Shown: piece by piece, positions 12,192-15,259 of the stretch
How the letters are laid out: every line of letters begins with the position of its first letter
Position numbering within the stretch: position 1 is the stretch's first letter
DNA from: a virus
IMG/VR virus record: IMGVR_UViG_3300042327_000031
Location: 1 to 24,627 of that record
DNA: 24,627 nucleotides
Strand: one strand, 5' to 3'
The notes under the pieces: model-generated
What the model was told of the DNA's origin: nothing
Seen by the model: the letters and a program-made list of their open reading frames with translations, nothing else
Databases searched by the model: none
Position numbers and translations under genes: made by a program

Positions 12192-12779
12192 TTAAATCAC
12201 AACGTAGCGAGCGCCGCTACTGATGGTTACTGTTACGCCGGAGTTGATCGTTACAGGCCCAGTGGACATCGCGTTCTTGGTCGCTGGGATGGTGTAGTTG
12301 GTAGTAACGGCTTGGCTGTTTTGGATAAACACCTCATCAGCACCGCCTCCTGTAGCGCCACCACCCACCGAACCCCATGCGGTGCCGTTGTAGCCCTCAA
12401 ACTTTGCCACGTCACTGTTAAACCGGAAAAACCCAGCAGAGGGTGAGCCATCACGCTGCGCCTCGGTGCCAGAAGGGATGCGCGTAGAACCGGTCGCACC
12501 CGTCACCACCTCAAGTGCCACCTTGGCAGCAGCGGCTGTGGTTGACCCGGTGCCGCCTTCAGCGACCTGAATCTGGTCGCCGGTCAGGGCGATGGTGCCA
12601 GCAATGGTCAGAACCTTGCCAGAGCCGACATTCATGCCGACAGAGGTGCCAGTACCGTCGGCCTTGAAGATGCCGTCAATCGTGTCCAAGTCGGTGTTGA
12701 TCTTGGTGCCCCACGTGTCGGTGGACGCGCCAACCTCTGGCTTGACCAGACTCAGGTTTGTGGTGTTCGTATCTGCCAT
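12192..12779 (-). CDS. Tail-fibre-type protein (195 aa)
   Basis: The N-terminus [34 protein letters not shown] (2-36) is a very common phage fibre motif ('LVKPE.G...D.WG.KIN.NLD.ID'), usually at the attachment end. [16 protein letters not shown] (71-86) is another typical fibre motif. The C-terminal part is Gly/Ser/Thr-rich beta-structure ending in [19 protein letters not shown], a tip-like strand repeat. AGAGG precedes the ATG. A structural role in the tail fibre is likely; receptor specificity cannot be read. Confidence 0.82.
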
Positions 12780-12834: not shown

Positions 12835-13593
12835 TCAAACCGCAGTCCAGACCTCCGTGCTTTGGGTGACCGGGGTCCATGTCTCGGACGTGTCATTGAT
12901 CCCGGTCCAAGTCTTGGACCCTCCAGCCAACTGACTCCAAGACTCCGGTGTGTCATCAATCTCGGTCCAAGTCTCTTCCGTGTCTGGGTCGTCGTTCCAC
13001 TTGTACCCACCCTCCAAAGTCATGCCGGAGATGGCGTACACATTGGCCGAGAAGGACCGCACACGACGAGAAAACACCGACAAGACACTCTGGGCGTCTA
13101 TCGCAATGGGCTGGTTGACGATGACGTTGGAGTCCATCGACATCGTGGACTCGCTGGCCACCGACGCCGACATGAAGGCGATGCGAATCGCGTTGATCTC
13201 AACAGCCGAGCCGGATTCAATGGCCGCAGCCCCGATAGCCACACGAATGGCTGATGCGGCGACAGAGCTGGCGCTCGTGATCTCACCAGCGCCCAATGCC
13301 ACACGCAGGGCCGAGACTGTCGCGGTGGACGCGTCAACAATCGCTCCTGCACCGATGGCCACACGCTGTGCGGCCACTGCGGTCGTGGACTGTGAGGACA
13401 CGGCAAAGCCGGATGCCTTAATGACGTTTGCCGCAGCCGACGCGCTGGATGTGCTAGATACCTCAAAAGAGCCGACGGCAAAACGAACACCAGCAGCCGT
13501 GACGGTGCTGGTGCTGGTGATGTCTGCGGCCCCGAGGCTTACTCCGTAAGAGTAATTGCCCCCGCCGTAGTAGCCGGAGCCGTATGCTGCCAT
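12835..13593 (-). CDS. Periodic repeat structural (fibre-like) protein (252 aa)
   Basis: The N-terminus is Gly/Tyr-rich (MAAYGSGYYGGGNYSYG). Residues 21-180 show about eight 20-residue repeats ending in (V/I)R(V/I)A or similar, e.g. ends at 80, 100, 120 and 140. Residues 197-252 switch to a 10-residue repeat with Trp at exactly 199, 209, 219, 229, 239 and 249 (ETWT / ESW / KTWT). Such strict periodicity indicates a repetitive beta-structure of fibre or decoration type. No enzymatic motif is visible and no named family was recognised. Position among tail genes supports a virion role. Confidence 0.8.
   Translation of the reverse strand: MAAYGSGYYGGGNYSYGVSLGAADITSTSTVTAAGVRFAVGSFEVSSTSSASAAANVIKASGFAVSSQSTTAVAAQRVAIGAGAIVDASTATVSALRVALGAGEITSASSVAASAIRVAIGAAAIESGSAVEINAIRIAFMSASVASESTMSMDSNVIVNQPIAIDAQSVLSVFSRRVRSFSANVYAISGMTLEGGYKWNDDPDTEETWTEIDDTPESWSQLAGGSKTWTGINDTSETWTPVTQSTEVWTAV
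12838..13005 (-). repeat. 30-bp-period Trp repeat
   Basis: Degenerate tandem repeat within the 252-aa gene: on the plus strand 'gtccaagtct' or 'gtccatgtct' recurs at about 30-base steps, encoding one Trp per 10 residues over six units. Only the coding sense carries the exact period. Confidence 0.75.
13054..13533 (-). repeat. 60-bp-period repeat
   Basis: About eight degenerate units of 60 bases in the same gene, visible as a recurring AIRVAIGA(A/G)AI-like segment every 20 residues. The middle units (residues 75-140) are most alike, pointing to recent duplications there. Confidence 0.75.
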
Positions 13594-13594
13594 C

Positions 13595-13990
13595 TTAGGT
13601 CAACGTGACAGTCAGGCTGGATGCTGGGACGCGGAACACGTCGCCATCATTGATGGTGCGTGCCGTGGTCAACTGCGCCCACGCCAGCATGTTGCCGCTG
13701 GTCTCGGCGTCAAAGATGGCCGCGTGGGTGACCGTGCCCCAGTTGCCACCGGATGCGGCAGCAAACTCGATGGCCGCGCTGTTGGTGGCCGTGGTGCCGG
13801 TGCCCGACACGGTGATGGTGCCAGTGACCTTGCGCACGTAGCCGGAGCCGGAGACCTCGGTGCCGCCACCCGTGTCGGATGGGGCTGCGGTAAACAGGCC
13901 CACGTACCAAGCCGTGGGGCGGGTCACAGAGCCGTTGGTGAACAGGTATGTGAGAACGAGGTTCTCGGTGTAATCAGAAAAAGAACTCAT
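13595..13990 (-). CDS. Gp80-like phage tail/structural protein (131 aa)
   Basis: Starts SSFSDYTENLVLTYLF and has the run PTAWYVGLFTAAPSDTGGGTEVSG (26-49), then beta-rich NSAAIEFAAASGGNWGTVTHAAIFD and the strand-rich C-terminus. This is a common virion protein family in tailed phages (phage tail protein Gp80-like, a beta-sandwich). It is placed right after the adaptor, so a role at the head-tail interface or fibre attachment is likely. Exact position in the virion is unknown. One base separates its stop from the next ATG. Confidence 0.75.
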   Translation of the reverse strand: MSSFSDYTENLVLTYLFTNGSVTRPTAWYVGLFTAAPSDTGGGTEVSGSGYVRKVTGTITVSGTGTTATNSAAIEFAAASGGNWGTVTHAAIFDAETSGNMLAWAQLTTARTINDGDVFRVPASSLTVTLT

Positions 13991-14610
13991 TATCGTGCTC
14001 CAAAGGGTTTGACTCTTGCCCGAATCAGACCACTCGCACTGGCGTTCTGGTCTGCAAATTTGATTGATTCAATGGCCGTATTGTAAAGAGTCCCCCACAC
14101 TGCGACACGCTCGTCGTCCTTCAAATACGGTGCGGCCTGCATCAGCGAGCCGTACAGGTACGCATCAGGAGACGACGCCAGCAGCCAGTTGGTGGTGACG
14201 CTGTCGGACAGCTTGGGCAGCTTGGAGAAATACATCAGCTCTGCCGTGTAGGTCGCGTCAGGCGTTGGCGAGACACGAATCTGGCCACCAATGATGGTGA
14301 AGTATTTGGGCATGCCCGGTGCGTTGGAGTACAACTGGTCCCGGTCGTCCATCTGCTCCGGCGTCAAAAACTCAACGGGCTGGATGGGGTTGGAGCTGGT
14401 GATCTTGAAGGTCTTGGCCTCCAAGAAGTCGGCAGGCAGTGCGCTGTACTGCGTGTCCACCGGAGCGGTGGCCCGAGCGATCATCTGACGCACGCGCAGT
14501 GGCCGCTCCATCTGGGACTCTGCCAGCTCAATAAACGTCGGGATCACCGCCGTCAGGTCTGAGCGGTTCAGAAAGTCAGCGATGTTGCTCTTGAGCTGTG
14601 CGTAGTTCAT
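13990..14610 (-). CDS. Head-tail adaptor, SU10-type (206 aa)
   Basis: Links the portal to the tail. The sequence MNYAQLKSNIADFLNRSDLTAVIPTFIELAE and the later LPADFLEAKTF, YF.IIGGQIRVSP, YTAELMYFSKLPKLSD and LYGSLMQAAPYLKDDERV segments are the pattern of the SU10-adaptor family (gp6/gp4-like helical ring proteins). The open frame can be read from a TTG at 14625, but ATG 14610 has AGGGA five bases upstream and lies right after the previous stop. TAATG junction to the next gene. Confidence 0.88.
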   Translation of the reverse strand: MNYAQLKSNIADFLNRSDLTAVIPTFIELAESQMERPLRVRQMIARATAPVDTQYSALPADFLEAKTFKITSSNPIQPVEFLTPEQMDDRDQLYSNAPGMPKYFTIIGGQIRVSPTPDATYTAELMYFSKLPKLSDSVTTNWLLASSPDAYLYGSLMQAAPYLKDDERVAVWGTLYNTAIESIKFADQNASASGLIRARVKPFGAR

Positions 14611-14611
14611 T

Positions 14612-15259
14612 TCATTCCCTGCCAATCAGTGTGTGCTCGTGCTTGTACTCAAACGTGCCGATGTGGTGGACCTCTTTGGACAGGTCTTGGTCGATCATCG
14701 TCTTGAACCCGTTCTCAGCCGCACGGCGGCAAAACCAGACGTCCTCGCCGATGTAGTCCTCAGCGGCTGGCACCCACGGGATGGCAAACCAAGGGAACTC
14801 CATCTTCTTGTAGACCTCTGCCTTCACGAGCATCACGCCCATGCCGCAGTAGTCCACCTCGACCAAGCCGGTCGAGTCCTGCTCAGTATAAACGCGCAGC
14901 ACTTCTTTGGCGTCCTCGTTCCCAGTGTTCTTGCGCACGGCAATCGGCTCGGTCGGAAACCGACGCTTGGCGTAGTTCGCGCAGACGATTGGCTCGTCAC
15001 GGTCCAACAACCGGATCAGCGCGTCCTTGGGGAACCTCATGTCACTGTCGAGCCACAGGGTGTGGGTGCAGCCAGCCTCAATCGCGTCTCGAGCCAAGTC
15101 TTGGCGCTGAGAGGAGAGCAGGGTGCCCGAGCTGGTGTAGATCACCACGCGGTTCTCTGTGGTGCCGATGGTGTAGCCCACTAGCCTAGCGAGGTCAAAG
15201 GCAAAGCCTGAGTTGACAAAGTCGCGGGTGGGTACGAGGATTCCAATGATGTTTGACAT
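14612..15259 (-). CDS. Glycosyltransferase, GT-A fold (215 aa)
   Basis: Probably transfers a sugar from a nucleotide-sugar donor. The N-terminal Rossmann-like strand is IIGILVPTRD (4-13). LWLDSDMRFP at 68-77 contains the DxD-type metal/donor motif (D71-S-D73). VDYCGMGVMLVKAEVY (135-150) and GEDVWFCRRA (171-180) match the acceptor and catalytic-acid regions of GT2-like phage enzymes, and HHIG (198-201) is near the end. It sits among head genes, so a virion protein, the cell envelope or host DNA modification may be the target. Which one cannot be read from the sequence. Confidence 0.85.
   Translation of the reverse strand: MSNIIGILVPTRDFVNSGFAFDLARLVGYTIGTTENRVVIYTSSGTLLSSQRQDLARDAIEAGCTHTLWLDSDMRFPKDALIRLLDRDEPIVCANYAKRRFPTEPIAVRKNTGNEDAKEVLRVYTEQDSTGLVEVDYCGMGVMLVKAEVYKKMEFPWFAIPWVPAAEDYIGEDVWFCRRAAENGFKTMIDQDLSKEVHHIGTFEYKHEHTLIGRE
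14616..14620 (-). promoter_or_regulatory. RBS deciding the adaptor start
   Basis: AGGGA on the minus strand five bases before ATG 14610. The alternative start is a TTG at 14625, which would place this site inside the coding region. Confidence 0.5.

What the first reader, a model, noticed from the sequence alone, without database searches (positions are those of the whole stretch)
12838..13533. Two-tier strictly periodic protein: 20-residue repeats followed by 10-residue Trp repeats
Counting residues gives Trp at exactly 199, 209, 219, 229, 239 and 249, and repeat ends at 80, 100, 120 and 140 in the preceding part. No indel breaks either period. The second period is half the first, which suggests one beta-architecture with two strand types, perhaps a novel fibre or spike fold. 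I do not recognise a named family.
Basis: seen in the sequence. Interest (0 to 1): 0.66.

Follow-up and report, generated by a model that had tools for sequence, protein, structure and literature searches.

The report
Phage bead-chain fibre 'rope' protein
This phage gene most likely encodes the long repetitive strand on which small bead proteins are threaded to build a bead-chain fibre near the tail, and the same exact 20-amino-acid repeat unit turns up next to the bead gene in very different phages, which suggests a shared assembly code that nobody appears to have described.

Summary
The ORF (window 12835-13593, minus strand, 252 aa) has nine indel-free 20-residue units (residues 19-198), then Trp at 199, 209, 219, 229, 239 and 249. 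Among 139 distinct relatives with a recognisable anchor, the anchor-to-first-Trp distance is 98, 118, 178/179, 338, 418 or 438 residues, i.e. 5-22 whole 20-mers. No Pfam, PHROG or PDB family matches the window protein. The clue is next door: in 132 of 132 testable relatives the gene starts 1-2 bp after a homologue of gp80, the bead protein of fibre I of podophage GP4 (PDB 8JOU). The rule reaches far beyond this family. Of 90 sequence-distinct proteins encoded right after gp80-like genes, 38 of the 44 strongly periodic ones have a period of exactly 20 (or 40), against 7 of 23 in control ORFs. My best reading: this is the scaffold strand ('rope') that gp80-like beads decorate, one 20-residue unit per docking step, ending in a Trp module. 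The pairing and the period are shown; physical binding, one-unit-per-bead stoichiometry and the function of the Trp part are inferred. AlphaFold2 instead offers a beta-solenoid, a known AF2 artefact for repeats, so that rival stays open.

The parts
12835..13593 (-). 'Rope' gene, 252 aa: anchor + nine 20-residue units + six 10-residue Trp units
13534..13593 (-). N-terminal Gly/Tyr anchor MAAYGSGYYGGGNYSYGVSL (residues 1-20), almost invariant in relatives; possible attachment segment (inferred)
   Evidence: invariant columns M1-Y4, G5, G7, Y8-G12, N13-S15, G17, V18, L20, G21
13000..13539 (-). Nine 20-residue units (residues 19-198), consensus about R-[VI]-A-x-G-A-x-x-[IV]-x-x-x-S-x-[VM]-x-[VI]-x-[GA]-x; Ser at unit position 11 in 89% of units
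12838..12999 (-). Trp tier (residues 199-252): W at 199-249 every 10, consensus W-T-x-I-x-D-T-S-E-T
13595..13990 (-). gp80-like bead protein (131 aa), homologue of GP4 fibre I protein; proposed partner
   Evidence: Pfam Gp80 E=2.3e-41; 8jou_a E=2.6e-14, 10 chains in one entry; 132/132 testable relatives have it 1-2 bp upstream of the rope gene
13990..14625 (-). Tail adaptor (SU10 adaptor family), context of the module
   Evidence: Pfam SU10_adaptor E=6.4e-38; phrog_2941 E=2.4e-54
12192..12779 (-). Next gene, 195 aa, with weak tail-fibre and virion-protein matches; context, role not examined

Best explanation
The protein is the scaffold strand ('rope') of a bead-chain fibre of the GP4 fibre I type. 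A conserved Gly/Tyr N-terminus attaches it, a run of identical-length 20-residue beta-prone units each offers the same docking segment to a gp80-like bead (or two units serve one bead dimer), and a Trp-rich C-terminal module ends the chain. The number of units, which changes only by whole 20-mers, would set how many beads are strung and so the fibre length. Shown here: the unit, its invariance and whole-unit copy change, the obligatory neighbour in this family, and the recurrence of exactly 20 next to gp80-like genes in unrelated phages. Inferred: physical binding, an extended rather than coiled conformation, the length-setting role, and the roles of the two ends.
For: The upstream gene is a gp80 homologue. 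132/132 testable relatives keep it 1-2 bp upstream; the two without it start within 64 bp of the contig end. Beyond this family, genes next to gp80-like genes have a best period of 20 in BcepMigl gp57 (annotated virion associated), phiM5 gp18, PBC5 orf12, POI1126 gp16, PVJ1, Lietuvens, C72C1 and, on the other side of the bead gene, mycobacteriophages Philly, Cepens and FlagStaff. In a larger sample, 90 downstream neighbours clustered at 45% identity: 47 have a best lag of 20 or 40 at Z>=3.5 against 10 of 150 control ORFs (Fisher p about 1e-15), and 38 of 44 at Z>=5; 39 of the 47 have no 10-residue Trp tier. Anchor-to-Trp distances are quantised at 20 and a 60-bp array expands the gene in L272. 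8JOU is titled 'Fiber I and fiber-tail-adaptor of phage GP4' and holds 10 gp80 chains. From memory of the abstract of Zheng et al. 2023 (PMID 37660940, not readable here), fibre I is five gp80 dimers linked by an elongated rope protein.
Against: No contact between the two proteins was seen. BcepMigl gp57, in the same slot in a GP4-like phage, matches no GP4 chain in the PDB, although five neighbouring proteins of that phage do, so it is not shown that GP4's rope comes from this gene. phiM5 gp18 lacks the 'detected in phage particle proteome' note that adjacent genes carry. About half of the downstream neighbours show no 20-residue period, including Venkman, ACP17 and Moby.
Confidence: 0.55

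Rival explanations
1. A compact right-handed beta-solenoid with one 20-residue turn per unit, i.e. a short rigid rod attached beside the tail, with gp80 only capping or anchoring it.
For: AF2 on a related in-frame pair gives strands repeating every 20 residues with pLDDT about 80-90 in units 4-8. VIA-align Z 14.7 (3.5 A, 183 aligned) to the putative adhesin 3ljy, 12.3 to SufD-type and 11.0 to tapirin beta-helices.
Against: AF2 for the window protein itself is poor (pLDDT 55, pTM 0.45). Foldseek gives no significant match for the repeats (best E 0.13; only the gp80 half matches below 0.001). AF2 is documented to give confident but unrealistic beta-solenoids for repeat proteins (PMC11795689). 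The model does not explain why exactly 20 recurs beside gp80 genes.
Confidence: 0.2
2. An ordinary homotrimeric tail fibre or spike (triple beta-spiral or similar) that binds the host through the Trp tier, independent of gp80.
For: It lies in a tail-gene block followed by fibre-like genes, and its C-terminal Trp and acidic repeat could be a binding module.
Against: Strict pairing with gp80 in 132/132 loci. The tip (Trp tier) is among the most conserved parts across relatives (W199 and W209 invariant, W219 nearly so), unlike typical receptor-binding tips (general knowledge). No match to any fibre family.
Confidence: 0.13
3. A non-structural assembly factor or chaperone for the gp80-like protein, not part of the virion.
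For: phiM5 gp18 is not noted as detected in particles while its neighbours are.
Against: BcepMigl gp57 in the same slot is annotated 'virion associated protein'. Long low-complexity beta repeats with variable unit number are unusual for a chaperone. In PVJ1 and Lietuvens the repeats are fused to a DUF2313-like/baseplate protein.
Confidence: 0.08

Closest known systems
Fibre I of Ralstonia podophage GP4 (gp80 beads + rope; PDB 8JOU; Zheng et al. 2023, PMID 37660940)
   Same: Homologous bead protein. In the GP4-like phage BcepMigl the gene after the bead gene has a 20-residue period (lag 20 z 4.5).
   Different: No sequence match of the window protein, or of BcepMigl gp57, to any GP4 chain. The Trp tier and the Gly/Tyr anchor are absent from BcepMigl gp57.
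gp34-gp36 module of Alishewanella siphophage LSH1 (PMC13243795)
   Same: gp35 is gp80-like by HHpred (E 0.0075 to 8JOU_g), with a neighbouring protein containing a poorly predicted beta-helical region that the authors cannot explain. A large protein of Alishewanella phage Slicko01, a phage they cite, has a 20-residue period with Z 11.
   Different: LSH1 gp34 carries a lyase-like payload domain.
Neck fibres of Anabaena myophage A-1(L) (gp80-gp82; PMC10966104)
   Same: Five bead-chain-like fibres anchored on a 15-fold neck ring.
   Different: Its beads are gp81 trimers in ~14 copies, with no long single-chain rope described; the shared name gp80 is coincidence.

Membership tests
GP4-type fibre I module | gp80-like bead protein encoded in the module | tested here: met
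   Pfam Gp80 E 2.3e-41; 8jou_a E 2.6e-14
GP4-type fibre I module | Repeat protein encoded next to the bead gene with the same 20-residue unit as in a GP4-like phage | tested here: met
   Window protein z 8.3 at lag 20; BcepMigl gp57 z 4.5 at lag 20; family-wide neighbour rule
GP4-type fibre I module | Sequence homology of the window protein to the GP4 rope chain | tested here: inconclusive
   No PDB sequence match at all; chains of unknown residues are not in the library, and the GP4 genome is not in the collection
GP4-type fibre I module | 15-fold fibre-tail adaptor (8jou_D-like) encoded in the genome | not tested
   Seen in BcepMigl; not searched for in the window, which is a fragment
GP4-type fibre I module | Rope physically links gp80 dimers in the virion | not testable with these tools
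Beta-solenoid (right-handed beta-helix) fold | Confident structural match of the repeat part | tested here: inconclusive
   Foldseek best E 0.13; VIA Z 14.7 on an AF2 model of a relative; AF2 artefact known
Pfam/PHROG tail-fibre families | HMM match of the window protein | tested here: not met
   Pfam best E 0.18, PHROG best E 0.24. Ten of 46 relatives match phrog_31951, unnamed, best E 7e-5. NCBIfam was not run.

The most novel reading that the evidence does not exclude
A 20-residue unit is a general, alignment-independent docking code for gp80-like beads across podo-, sipho- and myophages: sequences have diverged beyond recognition but the unit length has not, because each unit spans one bead position, and unit number acts as a molecular ruler for fibre length. 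This would be a tape-measure-like principle for side fibres.
Probability: 0.35. Interest if true: 0.8.

Novelty: new variant of a known kind. Interest (0 to 1): 0.62.

Why it matters
It would turn a set of unannotated or misannotated phage proteins ('ribonuclease E', 'serine-rich adhesin', 'hypothetical protein') into one recognisable class, defined by a period and a neighbour rather than by sequence similarity. It offers an answer to a question left open in print (why the neighbour of a GP4-like fibril protein is always poorly predicted; PMC13243795), and gives a simple prediction: fibre length scales with the number of 20-mers.

Tried and rejected
Pfam, PHROG and PDB sequence searches with the single protein and with profiles: nothing usable. 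AF2 monomer: low confidence, repeats only loosely folded, Trp tier unstructured. Genome-contig scan: no relative, so the host was not identified. That fold shows the bead half has the GP4 gp80 fold (Foldseek E 5e-4, VIA Z 11.7, 2.9 A over 118 residues) but gave no contact information. First alignments for it were wrong (gp80 or rope rows spread over both halves) and were replaced. First 50 kb of Slicko01: I misread a 138-aa ORF there as gp80-like; it is not. No gp80-like ORF was found by profile in the Slicko01 segments searched.

Full report
WHAT WAS CHECKED. The protein is encoded at 12835-13593 on the minus strand. Residues 1-20 are a Gly/Tyr-rich leader (MAAYGSGYYGGGNYSYGVSL), residues 19-198 are nine 20-mers without a gap, and residues 199-252 are five and a half 10-mers, each starting with Trp. 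Chance cannot give this: lag-20 autocorrelation has z 8.3 and six evenly spaced Trp has a probability of about 2e-8.

THE FAMILY. IMG/VR holds over a hundred relatives in one scan and 209 in another, in uncultivated virus contigs. One annotated relative, the Manatee Spring phage MW202879, calls it hypothetical. In 134 complete relatives the Trp spacing is 10 with very few exceptions. Over 139 distinct proteins the distance from the leader to the first Trp is 98, 118, 178 or 179, 338, 418 or 438, that is 18 or 19 modulo 20 without exception. So units are added or lost whole. L272 shows this at DNA level: a 60-bp tandem array of 8.4 copies at 88% identity inside a 513-aa member. Trp repeats number 6 (126 proteins), 4 (20) or 3 (7), mostly changing in pairs, i.e. 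again by 20 residues.

THE NEIGHBOUR. The gene directly upstream (13595-13990) is a homologue of gp80, the fibre I protein of podophage GP4 (Pfam Gp80 E 2.3e-41; PDB 8jou_a E 2.6e-14, ten chains in the entry), and before it lies an SU10-type adaptor. In all 132 relatives where the upstream DNA is present, the gp80-like gene ends 1-2 bp before the repeat gene.

THE RULE BEYOND THE FAMILY. I then asked what sits next to gp80-like genes elsewhere. In named phages the neighbour again has a best period of 20: BcepMigl gp57, phiM5 gp18, PBC5 orf12, POI1126 gp16, C72C1, PVJ1, Lietuvens and, on the other side of the bead gene, mycobacteriophages Philly gp32 (Z 9.6), Cepens gp25 (8.6) and FlagStaff gp23 (7.0). 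A larger sample from four scans was clustered at 45% identity. Of 90 downstream neighbours, 63 reach Z 3.5 and 47 of these have their best lag at 20 or 40; at Z 5 it is 38 of 44. Lags 18 and 21 are rare and 19 is absent. Of 150 control ORF clusters from the same loci, 10 (Z 3.5) or 7 (Z 5) have lag 20 or 40; Fisher p is 1.4e-15 and 8e-13. Some control ORFs with lag 20 may be ropes that are not immediate neighbours (for example L231_3204), which I did not examine one by one. The rule does not depend on the Trp tier: 39 of the 47 clusters lack it. Exceptions exist: Venkman, ACP17 and Moby, and about half of all neighbours are not periodic at 20. These may be other kinds of neighbours, such as ordinary fibres (one search shows some).

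INTERPRETATION. PDB 8JOU is titled 'Fiber I and fiber-tail-adaptor of phage GP4'. The GP4 paper is not held here; from memory its abstract describes five fibres I, each of five gp80 dimers linked by an elongated rope protein. A strand carrying equal docking segments is the simplest reason why a bead gene should be followed, in phages whose neighbour proteins share no detectable sequence, by a protein with the same unit length. I therefore read the window protein as such a rope. Shown: period, quantised copy number, obligatory pairing, recurrence. Inferred: binding, an extended shape, a ruler function, and the roles of the leader and the Trp tier.

STRUCTURE. AF2 on the window protein with 46 sequences is poor (pLDDT 55), and Foldseek finds nothing significant. 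On a relative whose two genes are in frame (L289, stop read as Gly), AF2 gives the bead the gp80 fold (VIA Z 11.7) and the rope a beta-solenoid-like course with pLDDT up to about 90 in the middle units. A published study reports that AF2 gives confident but unrealistic beta-solenoids for repeat proteins (PMC11795689), so I do not count this as evidence, but I keep the solenoid as the main rival. By general geometry the two readings differ strongly: nine solenoid turns span about 4-5 nm, while an extended strand of 180 residues can span tens of nanometres.

COMPARISON WITH THE KNOWN. The bead belongs to a known family. The rope has no family in Pfam, PHROG or the PDB by sequence. Membership of the window protein in 'GP4 rope' is not established, because the GP4 rope sequence could not be compared: five proteins of BcepMigl match GP4 chains, but gp57 does not. 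The LSH1 authors describe a gp80-like fibril protein whose partner has a low-confidence beta-helical region next to a payload domain and state that they do not know why. A large protein of Slicko01, one of the phages they cite, has a 20-residue period with Z 11. This fits, but I could not confirm that it is the same protein. Bead-chain fibres of another make exist in A-1(L).

VERDICT. A real, strongly constrained protein, best explained as the strand of a GP4-like bead-chain fibre, with an apparently undescribed 20-residue unit shared across distant phages. Two targeted literature searches found no description of it, which is not proof of novelty.

Noticed in passing
L210:4696-6222 (Octadecabacter virus 2 gp11); L213:5863-6693; L212:5731-6507: Proteins with ~20-22-residue repeats and six Trp at spacing 10 are annotated 'ribonuclease E' or 'serine-rich adhesin', probably misannotations. 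In Octadecabacter virus 2 the repeat period is 22 (Z 16.2), not 20, and the gene is not adjacent to the bead gene.
   Followed up: partly
L218:3256-4071, L400-L479 (Methylophilales phage MEP402 and relatives): The same slot carries exact 20-mers followed by a different Trp tier, Y-V-K-x-x-G-x-W-K with period 13/14, usually three copies.
   Followed up: partly
L228:5402-6427 (PVJ1) and L227:5403-6326 (Lietuvens): Five to six 20-residue units are fused in front of a longer domain (annotated DUF2313 in Lietuvens) in phages with a baseplate.
   Followed up: no
L481:3570-9101 minus strand (Slicko01 WGH49683, 1843 aa): Strong 20-residue period around residues 1050-1400 (Z up to 11) in an unannotated giant protein.
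   Followed up: partly
L272:3570-4075: 60-bp DNA tandem array of 8.4 copies inside the repeat gene: recent whole-unit expansion.
   Followed up: yes
L306:2935-4149: The Gly/Tyr leader is duplicated (MAAYGVGSYGAGQYSDPRVGYGYGSYGVGNYSRG) in a 270-aa member.
   Followed up: no
L211:5647-6243 (Sinorhizobium phage phiM5 gp18): The record notes particle detection for the adjacent genes but not for this one.
   Followed up: no
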